DNA from: Schizosaccharomyces osmophilus
Lineage: Eukaryota > Ascomycota > Schizosaccharomycetes > Schizosaccharomycetales > Schizosaccharomycetaceae
Assembly: GCF_027921745.1 (NCBI RefSeq)
Contig: NC_079240.1
Span: forward strand, 1,977,001 to 2,041,000
Length of the DNA: 64,000 nt
Direction: 5' to 3'
Part shown: positions 409 through 33,837 of the stretch, in pieces
Position numbering within the stretch: position 1 is the first letter of the stretch
How the letters are laid out: each line of letters starts with the position of its first letter
Notes under the pieces: model-generated
What the model was told of the DNA's origin: nothing
The model's database searches: none
Seen by the model: the letters and a program-made list of their open reading frames with translations, nothing else
Program-made: the position numbers and the translations under genes

Positions 409-1140
409 TCAAACATCAGCCCTTTGCTCAGCAAGAGGCTGAAGTTCGATTTCTTCGTTACGAGGTGGACCATTCCTGCTAATTCTGTTCTGACAGGTTA
501 TTAAGAGATCCTAGATTAAGAATAATAAATGTACTTACTACACGTGTCATATCTTGAATATCTTCAATCACATCTGGGTTTCCTAGAGAAGTTAGAAAGG
601 TTGATAGAAAATAGCACCTTACGAATGAGAAGAACAAACAAGCATATGTTCAGTACAGCTAAAACCATTAACACCGCAGCTGAATGTATAAATTCAAAGC
701 TTCCTGATAATTTTAAAGCACCACCCCCAACTCCATTGAAAATAATGAGTGTAATTAGGTCTTTACACACAGCTGGCGCTCCTCCACCTTTCTTAATGTA
801 CTTCTTTGTTGCTCTTCCAGCTTGCGTGAACAATCCCAGATAGAGCATATGCGTTGCTAATAGTTAGTAAATTGCTCAAAGTGAAAGACATTGTTGTTAA
901 CTTACCAAATAAAAACAACCCTAACACTACAAAAAAGCTGCCAAAAAGCCACCAAAAGGCTTGTGCATTCACAGAAACCTTCAAACCGAAAAATAACACA
1001 GGTAAAACAGCATAGGCCGCAATGTAGGCAAAAGATGTAGAAAACAACAAGTACATTATTATCTGCCACTTATCCATCGAACTCGACCTAGTATTATTAA
1101 CAGTATCTTGGGCGGAATTTTGAGCGGATCCATCAGCCAT
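409..1140 (-). CDS. wtf: wtf short (poison) form, predicted alternative product
   Basis: An in-frame ATG (MADGSAQN) lies at 1140-1138, a few codons into exon 2. Starting there gives a protein of about 197 residues. It lacks the exon 1 acidic/PPPY segment but keeps all membrane segments and the tail. This is the layout known for wtf poisons, which are translated from a transcript whose start site lies inside intron 1 of the antidote transcript. The sequence shows the in-frame start and the long intron 1 (about 193 nt against about 40-50 nt for the others). A separate promoter and meiotic expression are inferred. A second in-frame ATG (MDKWQ) about 20 codons later could also serve. Confidence 0.6.
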
Positions 1141-1474
1141 TTCTAAATCAATAAATTTGCTTGAAGCTAATGGATGTATTAGTAAATAGTTCGTTGTTTG
1201 TGAAAAGATAAAGGTGTCTATTATGTTTGCTGACAGTTATCGACAAGGTTATTGATTTCAAACCCAACAATCAAATAAACAAGCATGATTCTTCCATCAA
1301 GAACCGTTCAAAAAGCACGCAAAGAATTAACCTCTCTATTTTAATTCAACAAATCTTACCTGTATACGGAGGAGGCGTACCATCTGAAGGAGACGACCGA
1401 CTATCTGCCTTTTCATCATTGAGCGTTTTGGAAGAGTCATCAGAATCTGAAATAGGAGAGTACTTGTTTTTCAT
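409..1474 (-). CDS. wtf: wtf-family protein, long (antidote) form; candidate meiotic driver
   Basis: Five exons: 1474-1360, 1166-906, 856-623, 582-539 and 489-409, giving about 244 residues. Every intron has a GTAAGN donor, and most have a CTAAC or CTAAT branch point just before the acceptor. Exon 1 begins MKNKYSP, is acidic and serine-rich, and ends in a PPPY motif, as in wtf antidotes, where PY motifs recruit a Nedd4-type ubiquitin ligase for trafficking. Later exons encode several membrane segments (for example around IIMYLLFSTSF, FWWLFGSFFVV, LITLIIFNGVGGG and AVLMVLAVLNICLF) and a short polar tail ending EQRADV. The exon 2 acceptor could instead be at 1142, removing eight residues; both choices keep frame. 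In S. pombe, wtf drivers make an antidote from the long transcript and a poison from a transcript starting in intron 1, and they kill spores that do not inherit the gene. The copy looks whole. Family assignment is by architecture and N-terminus; driver activity is inference. Confidence 0.82.
1167..1359 (-). promoter_or_regulatory. wtf intron 1, candidate internal promoter for the short form
   Basis: This first intron is much longer than the other introns of the gene and lies directly upstream of the in-frame ATG of the short form. It contains a forkhead-like ATAAACAAGCA on the plus strand at 1275-1285, which matches 9 of 11 positions of the FLEX element GTAAACAAACA bound by the meiotic factor Mei4. 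In S. pombe wtf drivers, poison transcription starts within intron 1 and FLEX-type motifs have been described there. No transcript evidence is available here. Confidence 0.4.
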
Positions 1475-2569: not shown

Positions 2570-3440
2570 ATGAATGAAAAAGAAAGAGAAAGGCATCTAA
2601 AAACTGTCGAACCAGCCGAAGTTGCTTGTTTGAGCTCTTCTACAAGTCCTGACAGCTATTTACCGAAATACAGCGAAATCCCCTATTCTCATGTTGACAA
2701 TATGGAGAAAGGTTGTTTATGTTTACATTACGATCCAGTTCCTCCATACTCAGGAAGCAGACACCAAGAAGCGTCTACCAACATGGCAGGAGGAAATATA
2801 TGCTCTATTTCTTTACGAAAAGTCTTGACGGCATTATTGTGGTTAATTTTCTGGCCGGCAAAAATTGTGAGAATCCCCGAAGCACAACGCAGACAGGAAA
2901 ATGAAACTGCTCGGCTTAGTTTTTGCTTTATTCTTTCGGTCATAGTAAACTTTTGGTTTTCTTACAAATACCTTGTCCCCTTTATAAAGGAATCGATGAA
3001 AGAATCTGTAGGGGTAAACTTTCAAGCTACTGTAGCAGCTGTTCTTGTCGTCATGGCTTTCTACATGTTTCTATATGTTTGTTCATGTAAGTGAAATGGT
3101 GGAATTTTAATTTGATATGTTTACTAATGGGGTACTTATAGTGTTGCTGGATTTTATTGCTTTAGTGCTTTCTGGGATTGCTTGGATTGTTTCTTGGATT
3201 GTTTCTTGGATTATTGCTGCTCTTGGTTTCAGGATGTCGTCGGAAAGAAACGACTCGACGGATGGTAACTGGATCCCACTAAGCACTATGCCGGCAGAGT
3301 CTGAAAATCAATCCAACGATCGTAGTGATAATACTGCCGAACAACCGTCCTCTGAACATACCTCTGAACATACTGAGCAATCTCCAGGGTTACGCCAGGA
3401 ACCGGGTCAGTCTAGGGATGTTGAAAGCGGTGGGAAATGA
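2570..3440 (+). CDS. Multi-pass membrane protein with PPxY-like motif, wtf neighbour, function unknown
   Basis: Two exons, 2570-3086 and 3142-3440, give 271 residues. The 55-nt intron has GTAAGT, TACTAAT and TAG signals and joins the frames exactly. The N-terminal ~90 residues are polar and proline/tyrosine-rich, with YLPKY, IPYS and VPPYSG; the last resembles the PPPYTG at the end of wtf exon 1. The middle carries about four hydrophobic segments: around LTALLWLIFWP, FCFILSVIVNFWF, ATVAAVLVVMAFYMF, and a second-exon segment with the repeated unit WIVS. The tail is Ser/Glu-rich with a short SEHT repeat. I do not recognise the family. It may be a lineage-specific membrane protein, or a distant relative or antidote-like partner of wtf; that idea rests only on the PY-like motif, membrane topology and divergent position. 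Confidence 0.65.
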
Positions 3441-3768: not shown

Positions 3769-3887
3769 AGCCTACAGCATCCCGGATTCCCATGTTGTCT
3801 CCAACCATAGTACTAACGAGACCCTCAGACGCTTAACTGCAGTGATCGGACGGGAACTGGTGTTTTCGCCTAGGTGTGGCCGTAGAC
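3769..3887 (-). rRNA. 5S ribosomal RNA
   Basis: The reverse strand matches the fission yeast 5S rRNA along its length: it begins GTCTACGGCC, contains the internal control region around AGTTAAGCGTCTGAG, and ends near GCTGTAGGCTT. The length of 119 nt is right. A T-rich run follows the 3' end, as expected for an RNA polymerase III terminator. In fission yeasts 5S genes are dispersed rather than part of the 45S repeat. This copy lies 2.3 kb from the start of the wtf gene and about 0.33 kb past the end of the PPxY protein gene. Confidence 0.93.
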
Positions 3888-4582: not shown

Positions 4583-4822
4583 ATGCCAGTAACATATCAA
4601 GAAGCTCTTGTAAAGATTAATGATAATTGGGGAAGAATAAAGCTATGGCTAAAAGTATTGATGGGGCTTATTGCTCTCGATTTTGCATTACTAGCATATA
4701 TGTATGAAAACACAACCACAGTAAGAGCAAACCACATGTGGACTATTCTTAACGGACTGTCTGTTTGTATTAGCATTTATGTTATTTATTTATTTCAAGT
4801 TCCAACACCAACAGGGTGGTAG
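4583..4822 (+). CDS. Small two-TM protein, unrecognised
   Basis: A 79-residue ORF with a proper ATG. It has a charged N-terminus (MPVTYQEALVKINDNWGRIK), a hydrophobic stretch around VLMGLIALDFALLAYMY, a short polar loop, and a second hydrophobic stretch around GLSVCISIYVIYLF. The alternating amphipathic and hydrophobic pattern looks protein-like, but the ORF is short and I see no homology. A missing upstream exon is possible, since the ATG follows directly on a TTCCAG that could act as a splice acceptor. I infer a membrane protein; it may be a spurious ORF. Confidence 0.4.
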   Translation: MPVTYQEALVKINDNWGRIKLWLKVLMGLIALDFALLAYMYENTTTVRANHMWTILNGLSVCISIYVIYLFQVPTPTGW

Positions 4823-6354
4823 AACTACTTGTGAACATTCATTGAGGAATGTGTGTTTTTCTCATTAAAGAAGAAACGATTTACAGAGTCTTTTATTTTT
4901 ATTGAGTCAACTAAATTCCCTATATCATCTATAAGCAGTGAAACCTTACAAGTGTCTTTGTCTACAGTCAAGGGTAAAGGTGCCAGCCATCAGATGTTGA
5001 ACTTTTTCATACAAAACAACTATGTGTATTCAACTAAAGCTATGGAGACTCATAAGAAGAGGACTCTACATACCTGTTTACCCTGTAGTTGACTACTTCA
5101 GGATTTTGCTATTCCTGTATACACTTTACTAGTTGAAATCCGATTGATTCGCCAAGCTATCATAATTAATGAAGAAGGTCCGATTGATTAGCGAAAGGAG
5201 GCAAAGATATATAAAGCACACTACCGTCATTAAGACTGCATCAGATATAATAAAGAGACATGAGTTTTGTTTATGGAAGTTCATTGCAAAAGTAAACAAC
5301 AGAATGCGACTAAAGGTCGTTAACATCATAGTCGTTAGTATGAAAACAATCTTCAAGGTTTGATGCCTGTGTTTTACTAAACACCAAATGCGCTTCATCA
5401 TTTGTTCATTCCCTGCGCTAAATTTTAAGAAATGGGGCATATCTTGCAACTCCATTCTTCCTGCCAGAATATGATTATAAATGTAAAAACTTTTAAGATA
5501 TTTAGTACGGGTGATTTGACAAGCAATCTCTACGATACAAGATTAGTATGCTCTTAAAAGAATGAATTGCCCATACTTAATGGTGTAGTGTCTCGCAACG
5601 TTTATTTTTCCTGCAACATGTTTTGAAAAATAAACAAAGACTCTTAGAGAAATACTTAATATAATATCATTGTTTGATAAACATATTATAATATTTCTTG
5701 ACGGTTTTTGCTCCTGTATTCACAAGATGAAAGTGGCAGAAAACAAAATCATTAAAGGTTTTGAATGAAGAATTTGCTTTATTCCTAAAATGTCTAAATG
5801 AGCTCTCATCAACGGACAGCAAAGGACTTTTGATAGATTATGACATTGCTAACAAAACACGAAACTTCACAAACAACCACCAGTTGCCATATGACTTGTA
5901 AAAAAGCTTGCTAGCTCTGTTGATTCGACAAAGTGTTTTTGCTTACTTGCACTATTAATCGGATTATAGACGCTTTTTAACGTACATGTCTATTAATGAT
6001 CAAAGAGACATATCGCTCACATGTAACTGTCTATGAGAACCCTTTTCAATAAAACTGGTTATTATTTAAGTATAAAGTCTTTTAGAAGACTTTTTTTATG
6101 CACTTTTTATCAATATGGTGAGCGTGACTTATGAGGTAACAATCATTTGTGAGACTACCGCAGTAAGGCGACAAACAAGGTATAATCTTCAATGAAAGGT
6201 GGGCTGCTTTTCATATTCAAAGGGCATAGTAATCATTTATTTTTTATTTATTTCTTTTTTGACAGCGAGTGTTACTTTTTCCTAAGCTTTCAGTTTTCCA
6301 TCTCAATCTACACACGTAAATGAGATAGTTTTTTTGATGAAAGACTATCAAGTT
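4823..6354. other. Long AT-rich intergenic stretch with one weak ORF
   Basis: About 1.5 kb without a recognisable gene. The best frame is a 108-codon minus-strand ORF at 5129-5455 with an ATG and two hydrophobic stretches. Its composition could arise by chance in such AT-rich DNA, so I do not annotate it as a gene. Sequence from 5500 to 6350 shows only scattered short frames. Confidence 0.35.
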
Positions 6355-6426: not shown

Positions 6427-6853
6427 AACTTTTTATCTCTTCCGTAAGATCCAATGGCGCACTAAGATCTACATTTCTGACATGAATTATCGCATTGCTA
6501 TGCTCTGAAAAAAGTTGGTCCTACCTAAGCGACGAAAAGCGACTTATTTGGTAAAATAAATCTCATAATGTGATAAAGATCTGACTTGCCAAAAGAGGGT
6601 TTCAACCTTTTAAAACCATTTTTGCGTTTGTTTACCAGGAAGCATTCTTAATACCATGATATTTAAAAGAGCCGAATCGTTCCCGAATTTACTAAATATG
6701 AAACAAAGACTAAATATCGTTCGAATTGGGGTTTACACTAAAGCAAAAATGGTTGCTGAAAGGACACATTTGGTGACTGTATTCCACCGGGTAAAAACTT
6801 ATTGATATTCTTTTACGCTATATATATACTGTTGGCCTAAAGATAACAATAAA
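6427..6853. other. Intergenic between tRNA-Pro and tRNA-Gly
   Basis: AT-rich spacer. It has the T-rich terminator region of tRNA-Pro at its left end and a TATATATA stretch about 25 nt before tRNA-Gly. No ORF of interest. Confidence 0.4.
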
Positions 6854-6924
6854 GCATCAGTGGTGTAGCGGTAACATGGATGCCTTCCAAGCATTCGCTC
6901 CGGGTTCGACTCCCGGCTGATGCA
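6854..6924 (+). tRNA. tRNA-Gly (anticodon TCC), copy 1
   Basis: A 71-nt cloverleaf. Acceptor strands GCATCAG and CTGATGC pair fully. The A box is TGGTGTAGCGG, the anticodon loop CTTCCAA gives TCC, and the B box is GGTTCGACTCC. A run of eight T follows shortly after the 3' end. The sequence is identical to the copy at 9520-9590. Confidence 0.95.
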
Positions 6925-7205: not shown

Positions 7206-8729
7206 TTAGTGTGAAAGCCTGGTCACTAGTGGAACTTCACTGAGGGCTTGGCAACTGTATCCAGTAATTAATAAGCCAGGAGGAAGTGATTCATATCTGT
7301 TATACACCTCAATAACATTATCCAAAGTTGAAAAAATAAATCGTTGATCGGGACAAGAGACTCGCTCTGCTATACATACAGGCAGATCTTTAGGCCAACC
7401 ATTCTGCAACAGAGCAGAAACGAGAATGTCCAATCGATGCAACGCCATCAGAAAGACAGCTGTTTGCGAAGCGACAAATGGAGGTATTACTGGCATGGCA
7501 CCTTTTTGGCTCGTACCAGTGCAGACCAACAATTGATCTGCTATCCCTCGTTGAGTTATGGGAATTCCAGCTGAAACGGGAGCCATTAACGCGCTGCTAA
7601 TACCAGGAATAACTTTTGGGACATAGCCGTGCTTATGGAAGAATAATACTTCTTCACCACCTCTCCCATATATGTAAGGATCACCTTGCTTCAATCGCAC
7701 GACATAGTCACCTCGCATTAATGCGTCTAAAGCTACTTCGTGAAGCTCATCTTGGGCTCTATCAGCATTTCCTGGGAATTTTCGTGCAATAAATAAAGGC
7801 GTATGACGAGGAATGAGCTTCAAAACAGATTCTGGTACCAGCTTATCGGCTAGGATGTAGTCGGCCTTTCGAATGGCGTTCCGGGCAGCAACGGTCAAAA
7901 GCTCAGGATCTCCTGGTCCACTACCCACGAGCACGATCGTTCCTTTTTTATTAGTAGAGAAATTATTTGGATCGAGGGGAAGAGAGACCTTTTCCTTTGC
8001 AAAGTCTTCCTGAGAGGACAGGCTTGTTCGGGAGCTACTTGTGGAAGAGGGTTCACTGGAGGAGAGAGGTAAAACATAATCATCCGAGATAATAGAAAGG
8101 ATATCATCTTCAGACATACGAATTAGTTTTTCAAGCGGCCAAAATTCGCTGACGTGGTTGATCCACTGTCTCTTTTGTGGGTTCTGAGTAGAGGAACGGG
8201 CAATCCCAAAACGACGTACAGCTTCACCGGTTCCTGATGGAAGACTACTGACAACATGACGCAAAAGCCTTTGAGCAATTCGGCAACCGTTGGAAGTAGT
8301 ACTGAGAGCTATCTGTAGCGGGGGCTCTGACCAGCAGGCTGGAAGGGTAAAAGAACACAAAGAAGGAGAATCTACGATATTAAGGGGAATGCGATTTTGT
8401 TTACATAGGTCATAAATGTCCTCGTTGAACGTAAACTTTGTATCGGTAATGAAGACTATGTCGACAATATAATTTGTGAAAGCATTACCTAAAGTGAACA
8501 AAGAAGTTGAAAGGTCGAAAGAATGCATAGGTACTAGCTGTACCTTATCAATGGCCAATTTATCAGGTTGAAAAGGACCCAAATCAAATCCACCGGTCGT
8601 GCTTGATTCACAAAACCAAATAACCTTGGAGACATCCTCTGACAAGCAAAGATCTACCCGTTTGCATGCTGATTTCCCAGAACCGATGACAATAGCCACC
8701 GCATCCTTTAATGAAGTAGACAAAAGCAT
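7206..8729 (-). CDS. Uroporphyrin-III C-methyltransferase (siroheme pathway, MET1-like)
   Basis: A 507-residue protein. The frame opens earlier, but the first ATG is at 8729 (MLLSTSLKDA). The N-terminal ~200 residues look like a precorrin-2 dehydrogenase-type Rossmann domain (AIVIGSGKSA). The C-terminal ~250 residues are a tetrapyrrole methylase: VGSGPGDPELLT, the YILADKLV strand, RLKQGDPYIYGRGGEE, and VIPGISSALMAPVSAGIP. These are classic SUMT/CobA signatures. The enzyme would use S-adenosylmethionine to methylate uroporphyrinogen III twice, yielding precorrin-2 for siroheme, the cofactor of sulfite reductase. From memory the S. pombe counterpart is SPCC1739.06c, about 496 residues. The neighbour on its other side, cti1 (SPCC1739.07), keeps that order, apart from the inserted tRNA-Gly and pseudogene. 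Whether the N-terminal domain is still catalytic cannot be judged here. Confidence 0.9.
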   Translation of the reverse strand: MLLSTSLKDAVAIVIGSGKSACKRVDLCLSEDVSKVIWFCESSTTGGFDLGPFQPDKLAIDKVQLVPMHSFDLSTSLFTLGNAFTNYIVDIVFITDTKFTFNEDIYDLCKQNRIPLNIVDSPSLCSFTLPACWSEPPLQIALSTTSNGCRIAQRLLRHVVSSLPSGTGEAVRRFGIARSSTQNPQKRQWINHVSEFWPLEKLIRMSEDDILSIISDDYVLPLSSSEPSSTSSSRTSLSSQEDFAKEKVSLPLDPNNFSTNKKGTIVLVGSGPGDPELLTVAARNAIRKADYILADKLVPESVLKLIPRHTPLFIARKFPGNADRAQDELHEVALDALMRGDYVVRLKQGDPYIYGRGGEEVLFFHKHGYVPKVIPGISSALMAPVSAGIPITQRGIADQLLVCTGTSQKGAMPVIPPFVASQTAVFLMALHRLDILVSALLQNGWPKDLPVCIAERVSCPDQRFIFSTLDNVIEVYNRYESLPPGLLITGYSCQALSEVPLVTRLSH

Positions 8730-9519
8730 TTTTCTCTCGGTTACAATGGATACAAAGACCAAAAGATAATTCTGATTAAGACGAAAACTTAGGTGGGTTT
8801 CGACTTCGTAGCCTCGTCAAATGCTTGTGTACGGAAAGGACAAGCCAAATTGTGGGGGACGACTAGGAATTGTTCAAAAAAACCAAAAATTCACGCTTTT
8901 GAACTGTTCCCTATGGGCGTACTCAACTGAAATGCACTCAAAAAGATTCCAAAAAACGACAATAGTATTTCCTAAAAGTCAAATAAAAGAAAACAAAAAC
9001 AAAAACAAAAAACGAAATTCTCAATCCTCTATCCTTCTAGATTCAGCGTTTTCCTGTTCTTTCAAATGAACTTGTTTTGTATGCTGCTTTTCGGATACTG
9101 TAGAATTTTTACAACACCGTAAAACAAATTGTGTTTGTCAGCAAAATTCCTCAAGTAGTCTTTAGTGCTTTGCAACGTGCCGTGAAATACAAAGACAATG
9201 CCATACAACGAAGACTAATGCAAGAAAAACTAAAAGTTGGTTTTGGGAATCAAGAGAATTTAACACATCAAAAGCTCAAGCGCTAATGGTGCAATTTTAC
9301 TCTACGATTGTACCATATAACTGGAGATATATTTGTCCAAGAGATGCTAGGAATTGATTGAAAACAAAAAAGGTAGTTGTTTTTAGCGTTTACTGAGTTA
9401 TATTTTGGGGTTTGAAATACAGAAAAGGTAGAAATAAATACTTACCATGTTGAACGGTCACTCGAATATAAATTTCGTTTTACTATATAACAATAAGAAA
9501 TCCTTTCTTTTATAAGCAA
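8730..9519. other. 5' flank of the siroheme gene to the second tRNA-Gly
   Basis: About 790 nt. It begins with a short purine-rich stretch and shows no gene-like frame. Includes the presumed promoter of the minus-strand methyltransferase gene. Confidence 0.4.
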
Positions 9520-9590
9520 GCATCAGTGGTGTAGCGGTAACATGGATGCCTTCCAAGCATTCGCTCCGGGTTCGACTCCCGGCTGATGCA
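9520..9590 (+). tRNA. tRNA-Gly (anticodon TCC), copy 2
   Basis: Identical over all 71 nt to the copy at 6854-6924 and in the same orientation, with its own T-run (nine T) just downstream. The two copies flank the siroheme-pathway gene as a 2.7-kb direct repeat. Confidence 0.95.
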
Positions 9591-17139: not shown

Positions 17140-20100
17140 TTATTTTATCTCATGAAGCACAGAATGTAATATAGAAGTATCGTTTCCATTAAGTTCAAAA
17201 TCCAGTCCATCTAGCCATTCTAAGCGAGAACAAGATAGAGTAATTGCTTCTGTGTACATTTTCCGGCGGCTCTTTCCTGATTCTGGCATCGTTTTTATAA
17301 ATGCGCTGTCTTTCTCAGCCCACTTTTGTCTTGGATGTCTAAGTGTTCTTTGGGACGATTGGTCAAAATTCTGATGGTACTTAGAAGCAGCAGACAGTTC
17401 ATATACAGGATTGTCAATCATAGGATAAATGTTAAACGTCAAAGGATTCATGCGTAAGTCAAGATGAGTCAACTTTTTCAAGTGGGACAGCGTATCGCAT
17501 ACATTCTTCATCTTGTCAATTCTGTTGCCAACAAGATATAAACGGTGTAATAAAGAAAACCCTCTTAAAGCAGATAATTCACTTATATAATTGTGAGACA
17601 AATCTAAAACTCGCAGGTTCGGCAAACTCTTTGCAAAGTCGGCGGGTAGTTCTGTTATTTGAATATTTGCTAACTCCAAATACTTAATCCCCAATAACAT
17701 ATTATGGGTTTGAAGTACCATAGAGGCATTGTTCGACAAGTACAAATTCCTTATGTCTAAAGGAGGTGTGAAGATATATCTACCAGATTTGAATTCTTGC
17801 GATCGGAAAGAAAAATTAACTAAACGCTTTAGCCGATTAATATTAGGAATGTTCGTAAAGCAGTTGTAATCCATATATAACGTCCGTAAATTTGGGTACT
17901 GATCTACTTCCAGATGTTGAATGGCATTGTTGTTTAGGCGCAAAACGCGTAGATGAATCATCGGTTGGCTAGCTTGCAAGGTTGTAAGTTGATTGCCATC
18001 CAGCTGTAAAACCATTAAATTCTGAAGAGAGCTAATCTCTTCGATGCTTTCTAATGCATTATTGCCCAAAAGTAATTCTTCCAGCCTATTTAAATTAGAG
18101 TTTGTGAACGAGAGTTGCTTAAATCGATTTCCGCGAGCGCTTAATTTGAGAAGTCCATCCAAACGTAATATACCATCAATATTCCACAGTTGGTTGTTAT
18201 CAACGTTTAGTTCACGCAAGTGAATCAAAGGAGAGAGAGCTGTTAGATCTTCTAACTGGTTAGACGATAAATCCAAGTATTGGAGATTTATCAAGTGCGA
18301 AAAAGTAGTAAGACTAGAGAAATGATTGTTGACAGCATTTAAATTCCGAATTGAAGAAGGACATCCAGTTAAGTAGGATAACTCATTACTCTCTATATTA
18401 AGGTCTTCAAGACAAGGACATTGCTCAGAAAGCCCAATCAGAGAATCCAAGTTCCTCCTGCTTATGTCTAGTTGAATAATCCTTCTCCAAAATGGATGGT
18501 AAGGCTCTACATCTTCAAGTAAACGAGTGATAGATTGCTTTGAGACAGAAAAACTGTAATCCTCATCCATTGCCTGGTCGTCATGGGTTTTTTCGGGGGA
18601 AGTAAAGGTAGAGGTTGGACCATCGGCAGGGAAGTCAGAAGAATTGTTGGCAAGCAAATGATTGAAATTGTCATGACTATCATCCTTTGGTAGAAAATCC
18701 TGAAAGGAAAAAGCGATTTGAGAAGGAGTATTGGAAACATCACGAAGAGATAATGATGAATATTTAGGATCTTTACTATTATCTTTCCTCATAGGGTAGG
18801 AGTTTGGCTGCTTTTTCTGAACATTAGGGTGTTTATTCGAAGGAGGACTAGAATCTTGCGCAGCTTTGTAGGAAACAGTCAGATTAGATGAGAATCCGTC
18901 ATCCTCTCCTTCAGAACTGAAATCAAAAGCCATATCAGAGTCATGACCACGACGACGCCAACGGTTGTGTACACGGTCATACTCCATTGACCCTTGAGTC
19001 GTATCGATGCCATCCGGTAAGTCTGCTGGAGTGATTACGACCATGTTTGGATTTTCTGACTGCGCTTTAAAGTCGTGTTGATTATTGCTATCATTTTGTG
19101 TTTTCTGACTGCGTGACTTGAAGGAATCTTTCATACGGTCATCAGAAGAAGCATAGGAAGATCGCTTTTCACTTTTTGTTCCAGCAGACGACTGAACAAG
19201 AGAAGGCGGTGAGTGACTGGAGACAGTTTCTGACTGATTTTGGTGTAAATTCAAAAGTTTTTGCTTCTTTTCTAACTCGCGCAAGTGAAGCTGGTCACTA
19301 AGAGAAGGAAACGGGTTAGAGCTATCATCTTTGCTAAATTCGCTGGCTTCATTTTGTTCCTCTTCCTCTTGAAGACCGCTTAGTTTCCGGGGAAGGAAAA
19401 CGGTGGATTCGTGACTTGAAGGTGGTATTCGACCTCGTAGCTTTGCCATAACTTCTTCTACTTCTTGGTATAAGTCCTTGGTATTGAGCCCGGCTTTCCG
19501 CTCAGTTGTGCGCACAGGCTTAGAGACTCGCCTGGAGCTTGGCAAGGGAAATGAGTCTTCTGCGGAAGACTCGAAAGAGTTTGATTTGACATCCTGAGCA
19601 AGTTGGTTCAAATGTTCACGGGTAAAAGGATCACTAGCGCCCTGAAAAAGTTTTAAGGGAGAAGAGTTACCTTTCTGGACGGATGGTGAGGAAGCCATGG
19701 AAGACGGGGAAGATGATTTTGAGGAATTTGTCACAGAAGGATGTCGCCTCCGGGAGGAAGACCGGGAAGGGTCTTTCTTGGGAGACGAAGAAGATTTCTG
19801 AGAATGAGGTGTAGTAGAATGAGAAACAGTATGGGGTGGAGAGCTTGTGATCGGAGGAGAGCTATTTAAAAAAGTAGGAGACTGTTTTGATTGTGAAGAA
19901 AACGAATGATTGGGAGAAGATTTGGCATGATAGCTTCCTGAAGGTTCAGAGGAGATGGATGGAACTGAAGAGCTTGTAGGGATTGGGTTGGAAGAGGAAT
20001 CTGGTCGCTTTTGGGATGTGCTGGAATGATTCCTTGAACTACCGCCTCCATCAAACAAGTTTTCTAGATCTAGTTTTGCAAAAATATCACGAGCCACTGG

Positions 20101-20331
20101 GTTCTTTGCATTGATCTGTTTCCATTGCGGAATATCTAAAGAAGATTCTGATCCCTTCTTGAAAGTTCCTGGATCGCTGGAAGGAGCGGTAGGTACCTTC
20201 TTGGATGAGTTTGTGTTTGTGGGATTTGGAGAAGACTGAATTTCCTCCTTGGAGTCTAAATTATCGGAACTCGATCTCGGAATCCATTCTTCACTCAAAT
20301 CATGTTCTAGCCACAGTTGTTCCATGTTCAT
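17140..20331 (-). CDS. cdc11: Septation initiation network scaffold Cdc11 (centriolin/Nud1-like)
   Basis: 1063 residues, single exon, starting MNMEQLW (a second ATG lies two codons in). The N-terminal ~600 residues are low-complexity and Ser/Pro/Asn-rich with many SP/TP sites, fitting a heavily phosphorylated scaffold. From about 615 to 960 there is a run of leucine-rich repeats (LEDLNIESNELSYL, LQYLDLSSNQLEDL, LRVLDLSHNYISEL and others), followed by a C-terminal cap. S. pombe Cdc11 has 1045 residues with the same plan. Together with Sid4 it anchors Spg1, Cdc7, Byr4-Cdc16 and Sid2-Mob1 at the spindle pole body to trigger cytokinesis. It keeps its S. pombe place (SPCC1739.11c) between mug33 and ppe1. 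The upstream DNA carries forkhead sites. Confidence 0.93.
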   Translation of the reverse strand: MNMEQLWLEHDLSEEWIPRSSSDNLDSKEEIQSSPNPTNTNSSKKVPTAPSSDPGTFKKGSESSLDIPQWKQINAKNPVARDIFAKLDLENLFDGGGSSRNHSSTSQKRPDSSSNPIPTSSSVPSISSEPSGSYHAKSSPNHSFSSQSKQSPTFLNSSPPITSSPPHTVSHSTTPHSQKSSSSPKKDPSRSSSRRRHPSVTNSSKSSSPSSMASSPSVQKGNSSPLKLFQGASDPFTREHLNQLAQDVKSNSFESSAEDSFPLPSSRRVSKPVRTTERKAGLNTKDLYQEVEEVMAKLRGRIPPSSHESTVFLPRKLSGLQEEEEQNEASEFSKDDSSNPFPSLSDQLHLRELEKKQKLLNLHQNQSETVSSHSPPSLVQSSAGTKSEKRSSYASSDDRMKDSFKSRSQKTQNDSNNQHDFKAQSENPNMVVITPADLPDGIDTTQGSMEYDRVHNRWRRRGHDSDMAFDFSSEGEDDGFSSNLTVSYKAAQDSSPPSNKHPNVQKKQPNSYPMRKDNSKDPKYSSLSLRDVSNTPSQIAFSFQDFLPKDDSHDNFNHLLANNSSDFPADGPTSTFTSPEKTHDDQAMDEDYSFSVSKQSITRLLEDVEPYHPFWRRIIQLDISRRNLDSLIGLSEQCPCLEDLNIESNELSYLTGCPSSIRNLNAVNNHFSSLTTFSHLINLQYLDLSSNQLEDLTALSPLIHLRELNVDNNQLWNIDGILRLDGLLKLSARGNRFKQLSFTNSNLNRLEELLLGNNALESIEEISSLQNLMVLQLDGNQLTTLQASQPMIHLRVLRLNNNAIQHLEVDQYPNLRTLYMDYNCFTNIPNINRLKRLVNFSFRSQEFKSGRYIFTPPLDIRNLYLSNNASMVLQTHNMLLGIKYLELANIQITELPADFAKSLPNLRVLDLSHNYISELSALRGFSLLHRLYLVGNRIDKMKNVCDTLSHLKKLTHLDLRMNPLTFNIYPMIDNPVYELSAASKYHQNFDQSSQRTLRHPRQKWAEKDSAFIKTMPESGKSRRKMYTEAITLSCSRLEWLDGLDFELNGNDTSILHSVLHEIK

Positions 20332-21806
20332 TTAAGCTACTCTCATGTCTTCTTTATGCCGTTTCGTGTTTGTTTACGTTTCAGCTGGCATGCCTTTTGG
20401 TTAGTACGGAATAACGTGGTCGACCGTCCTTCCTACCAATATCTTTTCGGTCCTTAACTGATTTTTCGTACAATACCAAACATCACTACTCATTCTTCAT
20501 ATCTTGAATGCCGATTTGTTTACAAAGAAACCGGGTGGGATATTGTAATAAAAAAATTCCTTTAGTATGAGCGTATTCGAAAACAATTGATTGATTTGTA
20601 TAATATATGGGTTTTTAAATTTAAAAATGGATTCGAAAAGAACATAAAGGGTCTATAGTTTAAAAAAAGAACTTATGACTCACTATAAAATATTCATTAT
20701 TTACTGATTTTTAATTTCTGTGATTTGCTTCCTTTATAAAATAATTTTTCCTTATTCATTCACTCACTCGTTCTTTTCTGGTTAGGTCTGTCTGTGTGTC
20801 TTGCTCTCTTTTTTTATTTTTATTTGTTTATTGTTTGTTTATTGTTTCTTTTTTTTTACCAGGAACAAATATGTTACTTAGTAATCTGCTACCATACAAG
20901 GCATTACTAGCTGTGCTGGTGACATAGCGTTACTTGATAGAGTATCAAAGGTAAATAAAGGAACAACTGAAATAGGCATTGCAGGCATTGCTGTTTAGTT
21001 TCCAAATTTTCATTGTTTCGTCTACCGATGAATCAGCCAAAGAATAGCGAGTTGAGTTTCGCTGTACGTATCGTCCATCGAACTTGAAGCGTTCAAGATC
21101 TGTAACGTTACCACAATCCGTCTTTTTTCACGGAATTCAAGAGTAATTATTTGCCCTACCAATGTGATGATTGAATTATGTATTACTGCTAAATGGCATG
21201 AAGTTACCATATTGTTTTCATAAACATATAATTGAATATATACTCTTGCTCATTCATATAGCAAAAAATAATGATTGGCGGTAAAAGAGCCAAGACAATC
21301 GTTACATTCCATTAACAAACAAATTTCTACCAAAAATTTTGACTAGAGAAAAATTTATGAGAAGGGAAAGTTTACAAGAACTGAAGAATTTCTTTTTTAA
21401 TGAAGAAATCCAACTGTTCCTCAAAGAAATTCGTCGATTTTGGCCTCCAGGTACAAAAGCATCCTGTTACACATTACTAAGACACTTTCTAGACTTGCTG
21501 ACTTTACATATATTTGTAATGCGAATAACATTGGATCCTTATAAATAAAATTTATAATTTTATAATTTTTCATCTTAAATCTTTCTATTGGTATCTATCC
21601 ATGCACTATCGAATGAACAGAACGAAGTATTTATATCCCTCGTCAGATCTCACTTGACTTCACTAACCTATCTAGACTGACAGTAAAATCCTACTACTTA
21701 CGTATCCTTAGCCTACAACAAGCATTTGAAGAAAACAAAATATTCCTAAAGGAAGCAATAAAACGAAGAACAATATATTTCTTAAAAAGAAAAAAATCGT
21801 TTCAAC
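20332..21806. other. Divergent intergenic region cdc11 / ppe1
   Basis: About 1.5 kb with the cdc11 forkhead sites at its left end, T-rich and TTTG-rich tracts around 20800-20850, and only short random frames such as 21339-21548 (no ATG at its start, no known features). Confidence 0.4.
20367..20523 (-). promoter_or_regulatory. Forkhead/FLEX sites upstream of cdc11
   Basis: On the minus strand an exact GTAAACAAACA lies at 20377-20367, 36 nt before the cdc11 ATG. A second site, GTAAACAAATC, lies at 20523-20513, about 180 nt before it. This is the binding consensus of fission yeast forkhead factors (Sep1/Fkh2 in mitosis, Mei4 in meiosis). Use by any of these factors is inference. Confidence 0.6.
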
Positions 21807-22724: not shown

Positions 22725-24995
22725 GACAGATGCATTGCTTTGGATTTCTTGTGATGTTTAGGTTGTTTTTTCATTTTAATATGGTTAATCATCGTTTCAT
22801 CTTCTCTGATGGGCTATTTTTTCATATTCGTTTCTGGCTCTTCTTTTTTCCCTTTGTCTCTTCTCTTATGCTTGTCCTTCTACTCCCATTAATCTACCGT
22901 CGATTATATAATATTAAAGACGTCTAATTATAAGAATGTCGAAGCATCTTCCTCCGTCTTTTCTTTGGTCTTTTAAAAGCGACTGCATTTTCCTCAGCTA
23001 TACTATGTACTTTTTGCTCAATTCAATGAAATTTCCATTGATATATAGATCCATTTGTGCATGGACAAAACCGAAAAGGGGTTTTTTTTATTTTTTTTTG
23101 AGGAGGAAAAGACGAATGTTTTAGAAGGTGTATGAAAGAATCCAGAAAGTTTTGATGTATATTTTGACAGCCCGTGAATGGTGAGGAGGTTTTAACTATG
23201 AGCACACGGTAAATCTCTTGGAAATCTGTGTAAAATGATTTAAGAGTGACACACGTATAGTATGCGAAGAGCATTAATACTTTCTTAAGGAAAAGCAACC
23301 AAATCGTGCTTGAGAAGCTTGAAAGCAATGCACATTGAAAGATATGTGATTTCTATGCTTGGTAACGTTGCCAATCTTGTAGTTTTGGTCCTTGCATTTC
23401 GGCTTCCTATGGCTGCATTTGCCAATAATACTTTTCTATGAGTATGTTGGTACAGTTGCTGCATTCTCCAACGGTTTGCCAAATAAAATTTGCGATGATG
23501 TTCAGCGGCGCCGGATTTATGACGGTGCTAAAAATGAGCTATCGGCTTTGGGAAAAAGTACAGTCATTGCTAGAAAAAAAAAAACATGGAATGAAATGAA
23601 TTCGAAGCTTCGGAGAATGTGCGATACGAGAGCAATGTTTGAATAAAGTGGTTTATGTTTACAATGATGAATGAAGATGAAAGATGAGAGCTGAATTCAC
23701 GACCCTAGTGGGAAAGCTAAGGGTAGAAGAAGTATGGAAGCATTTTTGGTTTCATTTGAAGCCAAAAGGTAAAATAAACTGTTGAATAGATGGTTACTAT
23801 TCAATACCTGGGTTGTCGTCAAGAGAACAACTATAAGGATCTTTTATGAAATTGTGTTTTGTCCTTTTACCTAGCTTGAATGAGATGAGATTGTGCACGA
23901 GTTTGCTTGATTTTTATATTTGAGCGGCATGACTTGTTACAAAGCATGCCCGTTCATGAACCAAGTTTTGGTATATCTGCCCTATGCAGATCGCTTTTCG
24001 TTGATCTAGTTGATTTCACGAAAGGAAAAGTAATACCTTTCTTGCAACCCTTCGTCTTTGGACTAACTGGATGATTAAATTAACCCGCAGAAAGGGTTAT
24101 AGAAGTAGAAGAAGATCTTTGGTAACGAATGAGTGGACTCTGGATAGCGGAATAGATCATCTACGTTCCCTTCCCACTTGGCAAGAAGGTTGAGCTGTTT
24201 GCAGGATAAAAAACATTTCTCGATTAGACACATTTCGTCTATGGGTCTTGCTGCCGATGGAGAGAAAGAGAAACTAGCGAATGAACAAACCAGCAATTGT
24301 TAGAATTTCAAATAAAATAAAATAATATAATGAATTTATACATTCAAGCGGAACAGACATGCTTCCTTTCATGTAGTTTAAAAGCTAGCTCGTCATTCGA
24401 GATATATTATGCTTGCCAAGAAAGCGCCAAATTGATTTGATATTTAGTACATCTTTACACATCCTGCTTCCCCAAACAAAGTCTCTCAACAGTCGCCATG
24501 CTACGATACCATAAAGATTATAATCCTTACTGCTTTGCTCTCCACATCTACCGATAGCAATACAAAGTATGCCTCGTTCAATCCCTTTACCGCACTACTG
24601 TAACCGATCGTAAGCACTTTACCGCACTTGAGCTTATCATTCTCTGTCTTTGTTCGCAAAGCTTCTTTAAGTTACGTTGTGCTTCCAAGAACAGTGACGT
24701 TGCCACTGGAAAGATTCCACTCGCTTCTACTACTTCTTTCAGCACTTATTTTTTTCAACAGGGTAAGGGTTTTTCGAAACTTCCAGAATTGAATCTTAGA
24801 AATAAATAGCTTGGTGTTCCCCGCTACACTACAACTGTTATCCTTTACTTTGCATTATTAAAATTAACGATTATTGTCGTTTATCCCCTGTACTGAATAA
24901 CGAAATATTTGCATCAAGGATACAATAAAGTATTTTATATCCTCAACTGTCTTTAGATTTTTTTTATTTAACGATCTTTAAATTCTCATCAAAAA
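22725..24995. other. Long upstream region of ssa2
   Basis: About 2.3 kb between ppe1 and ssa2 in tandem. It contains many short frames but none with recognisable features. The right end carries the heat shock element and TATA-like sequences of ssa2 (TTTTATATCC at about 24935). It could host a noncoding RNA, but nothing in the sequence shows one. Confidence 0.4.
24775..24789 (+). promoter_or_regulatory. Heat shock element upstream of ssa2
   Basis: Three contiguous inverted nGAAn units: cGAAa, cTTCc and aGAAt. They lie 207-221 nt before the ssa2 start codon. This is the standard binding site of trimeric heat shock factor and fits an inducible Hsp70 gene. Confidence 0.75.
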
Positions 24996-26930
24996 ATGAG
25001 CAAAGCTATTGGTATTGATTTGGGTACTACCTACTCTTGTGTTGGTCAATTCTCCAACAACCGTGTCGAAATTATCGCCAACGACCAAGGTAACCGTACC
25101 ACTCCCTCCTATGTTGGTTTCACCGACACTGAGCGTCTTATCGGTGACGCCGCCAAGAACCAAACTGCTATGAACCCTCACAACACCGTCTTCGACGCTA
25201 AGCGTTTGATCGGTCGTAACTTTGAGGATGCTGAGGTTCAATCCGATATGAAGCACTGGCCTTTCAAGGTCATCCCCAAGAACGGCAAGCCCGTTTTGGA
25301 GGTTGAATTCAAGGGTGAGAAGAAGGTCTTCACTCCTGAAGAAATCTCCTCTATGGTCTTGATGAAGATGCGTGAAACTGCCGAAGCTTACTTGGGTGGT
25401 AAGGTTTCTGACGCTGTCGTTACCGTCCCTGCCTACTTCAACGACTCTCAACGTCAAGCCACCAAGGACGCTGGTACCATTGCTGGTATGAACGTCTTGC
25501 GTATCATCAACGAACCCACTGCCGCTGCCATTGCCTACGGTTTGGACCGCAACACCACTGGTGAATCTAACGTCTTGATTTTCGATCTTGGTGGTGGTAC
25601 CTTCGATGTTTCTCTTTTGACCATCGAAGAAGGTATCTTCGAAGTCAAGTCCACTGCTGGTGACACTCACTTGGGTGGTGAAGACTTTGACTCTCGCTTG
25701 GTTAACCACTTTATCCAAGAGTTCAAGCGTAAGAACAAGAAGGACATTACTGGTAACGCTCGTGCTGTCCGTCGTCTCCGTACTGCTTGCGAACGTGCTA
25801 AGCGTACTCTTTCTTCTTCTGCTCAAGCTAGCATTGAGATCGACTCCATGTACGAGGGTATTGACTTCTACACCTCTATCACTCGTGCTCGTTTCGAGGA
25901 ACTTTGCGCTGACCTCTTCCGTAACACTATGGAACCCGTCGAACGTGTCCTCCGTGATGCCAAGGCCGACAAGTCCTCTGTTCACGAAATTGTATTGGTT
26001 GGTGGTTCTACTCGTATCCCCCGTATCCAAAAGCTTGTTTCTGACTTCTTCAACGGTAAGGAGCCTTGCAAGTCTATCAACCCTGATGAGGCTGTTGCTT
26101 ACGGTGCTGCTGTCCAAGCTGCCGTCTTGACTGGTGATACCTCCGAAAAGACTCAAGACCTCTTGTTGTTGGATGTTGCCCCTCTTTCTATGGGTATCGA
26201 AACTGCTGGTGGTGTCATGACTGCTCTTATCAAGCGTAACACTACCATTCCTACCAAGAAGTCCGAAGTCTTCTCTACTTACTCTGACAACCAACCCGGT
26301 GTCTTGATTCAAGTCTACGAAGGTGAGCGTGCTCGTACCAAGGACTGCAACTTGCTCGGTAAGTTCGAACTCTCTGGTATTCCTCCTGCCCCTCGTGGTG
26401 TTCCTCAAATCGAAGTTACCTTCGATGTTGACGCCAACGGTATCTTGAACGTGTCCGCCCTCGAGAAGGGTACTGGTAAGACTCAAAAGATTACCATCAC
26501 CAACGACAAGGGTCGTCTCTCTAAGGAAGAAATTGACCGCATGGTTGCTGATGCCGAGAAGTACAAGGCTGAAGATGAAGCTGAAGCTGCTCGTATTCAA
26601 GCCAAGAACCACTTTGAATCCTATGCCTACTCTTTGCGTAACTCCATGGATGACCCCAACTTGAAGGACAAGGTTGAGGCCTCTGACAAGGAAACCATTG
26701 ACAAGGCTGTCAAGGAGAGCATCGAATGGCTCGACAACAACACCACTGCTGCTAAGGACGAATACGAGTCCAAGCAAAAGGAATTGGAAGGTGTTGCCAA
26801 CCCCATCATGGCCAAGGTTTACCAAGCTGGTGGTGCTCCTGAAGGCGCTGCTCCCGGTGCCGCTCCTGAGGGTGCTCCTGGTGCTGCCCCTGGCGGTGAG
26901 CAAGGTCCCGAAGTTGAGGAAGTTGATTAA
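24996..26930 (+). CDS. ssa2: Cytosolic Hsp70 chaperone
   Basis: 644 residues, intronless, starting [17 protein letters not shown]. It has the ATPase domain ([14 protein letters not shown], the [13 protein letters not shown] strand), the substrate-binding domain and a Gly/Ala/Pro-rich lid ending in EEVD, the cytosolic Hsp70 tail that binds TPR co-chaperones. Codon use is strongly biased to preferred codons, unlike its neighbours, as expected for a highly expressed gene. The S. pombe gene in this position is ssa2 (SPCC1739.13). A near-perfect heat shock element lies upstream. The long antisense open frame is a by-product of this codon bias. Confidence 0.96.

Positions 26931-31905: not shown

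Positions 31906-33837
<1,932 letters not shown>

What the first reader, a model, noticed from the sequence alone, without database searches (positions are those of the whole stretch)
409..1474. Apparently whole wtf-type killer meiotic driver outside S. pombe
The minus strand holds a five-exon gene with an MKNKYSP start, an acidic exon 1 ending in PPPY, a long intron 1, a second in-frame ATG at the exon 2 border, several membrane spans and a polar tail. This is the antidote/poison layout of wtf drivers. All frames stay open, so both products could be made. Seen directly: exon structure, open frames, motifs. Known: the wtf family architecture and its spore killing. Inferred: that this copy drives.
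Basis: partly seen in the sequence, partly recalled or inferred. Interest (0 to 1): 0.85.

Follow-up and report, generated by a model that had tools for sequence, protein, structure and literature searches.

The report
Intact wtf gene beside wag, 5S
A fission yeast that is not S. pombe carries an apparently intact gene of the wtf poison-and-antidote family, in a gene arrangement already published for three such species, so it is a good but expected example.

Summary
The minus strand has a five-exon gene at 1474-409 encoding 244 residues, with an in-frame second start at 1140-1138 giving a 197-residue short form. The frame stays open far beyond chance (0 of 500 shuffles). Residues 1-144 align with Pfam's WTF profile from position 1 (E 0.00083, 19.7 bits, under the curated cut-off of 25); 0 of 6 scrambled or reversed controls match it. 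Upstream lie a divergent two-exon membrane-protein gene and a 5S rRNA gene: the published 5S rDNA-wag-wtf unit of S. octosporus, S. osmophilus and S. cryophilus (PMC9562144). The short-form start is base 27 of exon 2, as in S. octosporus wtf25. One PY motif is present, only in the long form.

That wtf genes occur and drive outside S. pombe was published in 2022. Drive by this copy is not shown: intron 1 has forkhead-type cores but no good FLEX site, exon 4 lacks the repeat, intron 4 lacks a standard branch site. I could not name the species or match the copy to the catalogue. A small lead: the wag-like neighbour also has a PY motif.

The parts
1360..1474 (-). wtf exon 1: start of the long (antidote) form, MKNKYSP...PPPYT; PY motif at residues 34-37
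1167..1359 (-). intron 1 (193 nt), presumed poison promoter; CTAAT branch site near acceptor 1167; no ATG between those at 1286 and 1140
   Evidence: promoter role inferred from published wtf genes
906..1166 (-). wtf exon 2 (261 nt)
1138..1140 (-). in-frame ATG, base 27 of exon 2: start of the 197-residue short (poison) form
623..856 (-). wtf exon 3 (234 nt)
539..582 (-). wtf exon 4 (44 nt), without the IGNxxxG repeat
409..489 (-). wtf exon 5 (81 nt with stop), polar tail; intron 4 before it lacks a CTRAY branch site
1275..1285 (+). weak FLEX-like site ATAAACAAGCA (2 mismatches) in intron 1, opposite to the gene; holds a forkhead core
1224..1234 (-). weak FLEX-like site GTCAGCAAACA (2 mismatches) in intron 1, along the gene; holds a forkhead core
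2570..3086 (+). wag-like gene exon 1, divergent from wtf; PY motif LPKY at residues 31-34
   Evidence: called wag by position, orientation and kind only, not by sequence
3142..3440 (+). wag-like gene exon 2 (271-residue protein in all)
3769..3887 (-). 5S rRNA gene, same strand as wtf
   Evidence: Rfam RF00001, 103.8 bits, E 1.1e-21

Best explanation
It is an intact wtf gene of a Schizosaccharomyces species other than S. pombe, of the S. octosporus / S. osmophilus / S. cryophilus type, inside a 5S rDNA-wag-wtf unit. Shown here: the open five-exon frame, the in-frame second start, the PY motif confined to the long form, the weak WTF profile match, and the wag-like and 5S neighbours. Inferred from the published family: a long transcript makes the antidote; a meiotic transcript starting in intron 1 makes the poison, the same membrane protein without the PY-motif tail. 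The poison reaches all spores and does its harm at the trans-Golgi or beyond. The antidote binds it, is ubiquitinated through the PY motif by a Rsp5/NEDD4-type ligase, and carries it to the endosome and vacuole, so spores that inherit the gene survive. I put membership at about 0.92, and active drive by this copy at about 0.3.
For: Pfam WTF PF03303 aligned to residues 1-144 from profile position 1, E 0.00083; same for two variant 3' ends, absent from 5 block shuffles and the reversed protein. Short-form start at base 27 of exon 2, as in S. octosporus wtf25; the antidote form is 141 nt longer here, 135 nt in wtf25 by the repeat coordinates. One PY motif (PPPY, residue 34) in the long form, none in the short one, as published for the intact wtf genes of the three species. 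Five lysines in the long-form-only tail, one in the shared tail up to residue 72. Divergent wag-like gene and 5S rRNA gene upstream, the published layout. Frame beyond chance and codon choice. Four forkhead-type cores in intron 1; 19 of 3026 overlapping noncoding pieces of the same length have as many. Mechanism (passages).
Against: The WTF score is below Pfam's curated cut-off, and the short form alone does not match. The 236-residue model gave no WTF row but a DUF2207_C row at E 0.0022, 18.2 bits, so E-values near 0.001 are not safe for this hydrophobic protein. No non-pombe wtf sequence was available for direct comparison. For drive: the FLEX consensus is met only with 2 mismatches; no exon 4 repeat, which the validated S. 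octosporus drivers have; intron 4 has no standard branch site.
Confidence: 0.92

Rival explanations
1. An intact wtf gene that does not drive now: the short form is made too weakly or is not toxic, so the gene acts at most as an antidote against close relatives. (This is a rival on drive, not on membership.)
For: FLEX consensus met only with 2 mismatches in intron 1. In S. octosporus 31 of 48 intact genes had detectable short transcripts; 3 of 7 tested genes clearly drove and 2 more perhaps weakly, though well-expressed ones were preferred for testing. One natural poison, S. osmophilus wtf19, was not toxic. No exon 4 repeat.
Against: Poison start and frame are intact; 14 S. octosporus genes without a confident FLEX site still make short transcripts; one S. 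pombe driver lacks the homologous repeat; intron 1 is rich in forkhead-type cores.
Confidence: 0.55
2. A recently decayed wtf copy that has lost the splicing of intron 4, leaving a four-exon product.
For: Intron 4 lacks a CTRAY branch site; leaving it unspliced still gives a 237-residue protein. In S. osmophilus, copies without a fifth exon were annotated as pseudogenes.
Against: Donor GTAAGT and acceptor CAG are intact and exon 5 reads in frame to a stop.
Confidence: 0.1
3. An unrelated multi-pass membrane protein gene that resembles wtf by chance.
For: WTF score under the curated cut-off; the 236-residue model matched an unrelated membrane family, DUF2207_C, at E 0.0022.
Against: Profile match collinear from residue 1, absent from 6 controls; several independent published features coincide.
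Confidence: 0.03

Closest known systems
wtf genes of S. octosporus, S. osmophilus and S. cryophilus (De Carvalho et al. 2022, PMC9562144)
   Different: No exon 4 repeat here; no confident FLEX site (also lacking in 28 of 48 S. octosporus, 31 of 31 S. osmophilus and 1 of 2 S. cryophilus intact genes). Sequence identity could not be measured.
S. octosporus wtf25 (proven driver)
   Same: Short form starts at base 27 of exon 2; antidote form longer by 135 nt there, 141 nt here.
   Different: wtf25 has 30 bp of repeats in exon 4, absent here.
S. pombe wtf drivers (Pfam WTF, PF03303)
   Same: Weak but collinear profile match from residue 1; dual-start layout.
   Different: Most S. pombe genes are tied to Tf LTRs rather than to wag and 5S rDNA; the score here is under the curated cut-off.

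Membership tests
wtf gene family | Sequence similarity to wtf proteins | tested here: inconclusive
   PF03303 E 0.00083, 19.7 bits, cut-off 25; 0 of 6 controls; no row for the 236-residue model or the short form. The closest published pombe-octosporus pair shares 16% identity, so a weak score is expected.
wtf gene family | Five-exon structure with long intron 1 | tested here: met
   intron 4 the weakest
[quoted passage not shown]
   ATG at 1140, base 27 of exon 2
wtf gene family | PY motif in the antidote-only tail | tested here: met
   PPPY at residue 34, none in the short form
wtf gene family | Multi-pass membrane protein | tested here: met
   Hydropathy scan: stretches about 74-105, 106-136 and 175-209; number of spans not settled
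wtf gene family (outside S. pombe) | Association with 5S rDNA and a divergent wag gene | tested here: met
   the neighbour is called wag by place, orientation and kind, not by sequence
wtf driver | FLEX (Mei4) site in intron 1 | tested here: not met
   Only two sites with 2 mismatches, though four forkhead-type cores. A correlate of short-transcript expression, not of membership.
wtf driver | Exon 4 seven-residue repeat (IGNxxxG) | tested here: not met
   one functional S. pombe driver lacks the homologous repeat
wtf driver | Poison toxicity, antidote rescue and biased transmission | not testable with these tools
   needs laboratory expression and crosses

The most novel reading that the evidence does not exclude
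The divergent wag-like protein is not a bystander. It too has a PY motif (LPKY, residues 31-34) in a tail of about 76 residues before its first hydrophobic stretch, so it may be a PY-motif membrane protein sorted by the same ubiquitin ligases. It would then be a helper or modifier of the poison-antidote pair, which would explain why wag travels with wtf.
Probability: 0.1. Interest if true: 0.5.

Novelty: already known. Interest (0 to 1): 0.25.

Why it matters
It shows that a fast-evolving selfish gene can be recognised in raw sequence at about the limit of profile detection, and gives a clean 5S-wag-wtf unit for study. Its lack of a good FLEX site and of the exon 4 repeat makes it a fair test of what a wtf gene needs in order to drive. 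The PY motif in wag is a small testable lead on a gene family described as uncharacterized.

Tried and rejected
A 236-residue model with intron 1 acceptor 1143 was rejected for acceptor 1167: a branch site close by, and only the latter gives a WTF row. An intron 4 acceptor at 511 would make a 28-nt intron and was rejected as too short (minimum size recalled); it would add seven residues.

A whole genome for the window is not held, so other copies, the catalogue entry and the species could not be checked. tBLASTn of the 236-residue wtf model and the two unspliced pieces of the wag-like gene gave no second copy in the window; the best non-self matches had E 1.2 or more. The 5S gene has no second or partial copy in the window at E 1. 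No solved structure matches the wtf protein at E 1. wtf and wag show no BLASTP similarity (best E 2.5). Structure prediction was not run, because a spliced protein is not read letter for letter from one frame, as that tool requires. FLEX-like sites: 60 in the window against 37.3 expected, 0 of 100 shuffles as many, so they are common here; one or more fall in 547 and two or more in 90 of 3026 overlapping noncoding pieces of 193 nt. Four or more forkhead cores (RYAAAYA, pattern recalled and chosen after looking) fall in 19 of those 3026. The first codon test used the 236-residue model and failed for wag through a one-base slip in its acceptor (3143 for 3142); one search repeats both with the final models (wag: +0.6 against -18.8, sd 7.5; 7 of 2000 draws as high).

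Papers. PMC9562144: outline, sections 5, 7-12, 16 and 38, part 1 of 2 of section 6, and 12 of 17 found places. PMC10721834, PMC11892871, PMC10085805, PMC9762604: found passages only. Others: search listings only. Supplementary tables were not open to me. The MKNKY start of S. pombe wtf proteins and S. pombe gene names of neighbours other than ssp2 are recalled; a text search for MKNKY found no paper.

Full report
What is there. On the minus strand a five-exon gene runs from 1474 to 409. Exons are 1474-1360, 1166-906, 856-623, 582-539 and 489-409; introns are 193, 49, 40 and 49 nt. All four donors begin GTAAG. Introns 1-3 have a CTAAY branch site close to the acceptor; intron 4 has none. The second in-frame start at 1140 gives a 197-residue form. 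No ATG lies between those at 1286 and 1140, so a transcript starting there would meet 1140 first.

Is it more than chance? A search for the longest spliced frame gives 714 nt in the real region. In 500 dinucleotide shuffles the mean was 163 and the largest 426. The search required a branch site and so left intron 4 unspliced; the five-exon model has 735 nt. Codon choice favours the frame: 3 of 2000 synonymous draws scored as high.

Is it a wtf protein? My first model (acceptor 1143, 236 residues) gave no WTF row, and an unrelated membrane family, DUF2207_C, at E 0.0022. The 244-residue model matches Pfam WTF over residues 1-144 from profile position 1, E 0.00083, 19.7 bits, below the curated cut-off of 25. 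All 3 of 3 long forms with acceptor 1167 match; the short form alone does not; 0 of 6 controls (5 block shuffles and the reversed protein) match. Taken alone the score is not proof. A weak score is expected: the closest published S. pombe-S. octosporus pair is 16% identical (PMC9562144).

Neighbourhood. Divergent from it lies a two-exon gene at 2570-3086 and 3142-3440, 271 residues with hydrophobic stretches. Its frame is 816 nt against a largest of 549 in 300 shuffles, and 7 of 2000 synonymous draws scored as high. Beyond it is a 5S rRNA gene at 3887-3769. This is the published 5S rDNA-wag-wtf unit; in S. octosporus wag and wtf are all divergent. I call the neighbour wag by place, orientation and kind, having no wag sequence to compare. 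Downstream, the window ends 408 bases after the stop, so a second 5S gene there cannot be excluded.

Which yeast? The C-terminal part of the ssp2 product (frame 32821-33834) is identical to the S. pombe protein at 107 of 137 residues, so the genome is most likely a Schizosaccharomyces but not S. pombe. Species within the genus was not determined.

How it would work. In S. pombe, PY motifs in the antidote tail recruit Rsp5/NEDD4 ligases; ubiquitination sends the antidote and bound poison from the trans-Golgi to the endosome, and tests with four S. octosporus antidotes fit the same rule (PMC10721834). In S. pombe wtf4 all spores are exposed to the poison and only inheriting spores get enough antidote (PMC9762604). 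Here the long form has one PY motif, PPPY, and the short form none; the long-form-only tail has five lysines and the shared tail one. The anatomy fits that mechanism; the mechanism itself is inferred.

Does this copy drive? Not shown. Intron 1 has two FLEX-like sites with two mismatches each. One (1275-1285) is opposite to the gene, its core 135-141 bases upstream of the poison start; the S. pombe wtf4 site is also opposite and lies about 110 bases upstream. Two or more such sites occur in 90 of 3026 overlapping noncoding pieces. Looser forkhead cores number four in intron 1, matched by 19 of 3026 pieces, a hint in favour of a Mei4-type promoter, though the pattern was chosen after looking. 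Published confident FLEX sites: 20 of 48 S. octosporus, 0 of 31 S. osmophilus, 1 of 2 S. cryophilus intact genes. Exon 4 lacks the IGNxxxG repeat; the validated S. octosporus drivers have such repeats, one functional S. pombe driver lacks the homologous one.

What is new. Little. wtf genes outside S. pombe, their 5S and wag context, their poison-antidote action and drive in S. octosporus were published in 2022. The copy is most likely one of those catalogued, but I could not check; S. lindneri, which has wtf genes but lacked a high-quality genome in 2023, is not excluded. One small lead: the wag-like protein has a PY motif, LPKY at residues 31-34. Thirteen conserved protein stretches of the window have 3 such motifs in 7421 residues, so about 0.03 would be expected in a 76-residue tail. 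It is one protein and one motif. In a text search for 'wag gene' with 'Schizosaccharomyces octosporus', only PMC9562144 was found.

Noticed in passing
window 24978-26903 (-) and 24996-26930 (+): A 641-residue open frame runs antisense through almost the whole Hsp70 gene; probably a by-product of codon choice.
   Followed up: no
window 6852-6924 and 9518-9590: Two identical tRNA-Gly (TCC) genes flank the sirohaem-synthesis-like gene at 7206-8762.
   Followed up: no
window 3182-3217 and 3351-3374: Short in-frame 12-base tandem repeats in the wag-like gene, in a membrane stretch (IVSWIVSW) and in the tail (SEHTSEHT).
   Followed up: no
window 4583-4822 (+) and 5129-5455 (-): Two small membrane-protein-like open frames between the 5S gene and the tRNA-Pro gene; no Pfam match above cut-off, no longer spliced frame of note.
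   Followed up: partly
window 20367-20377 (-): The only exact FLEX (GTAAACAAACA) site of the window lies just upstream of the LRR gene at 17140-20331 (recalled as cdc11-like).
   Followed up: no
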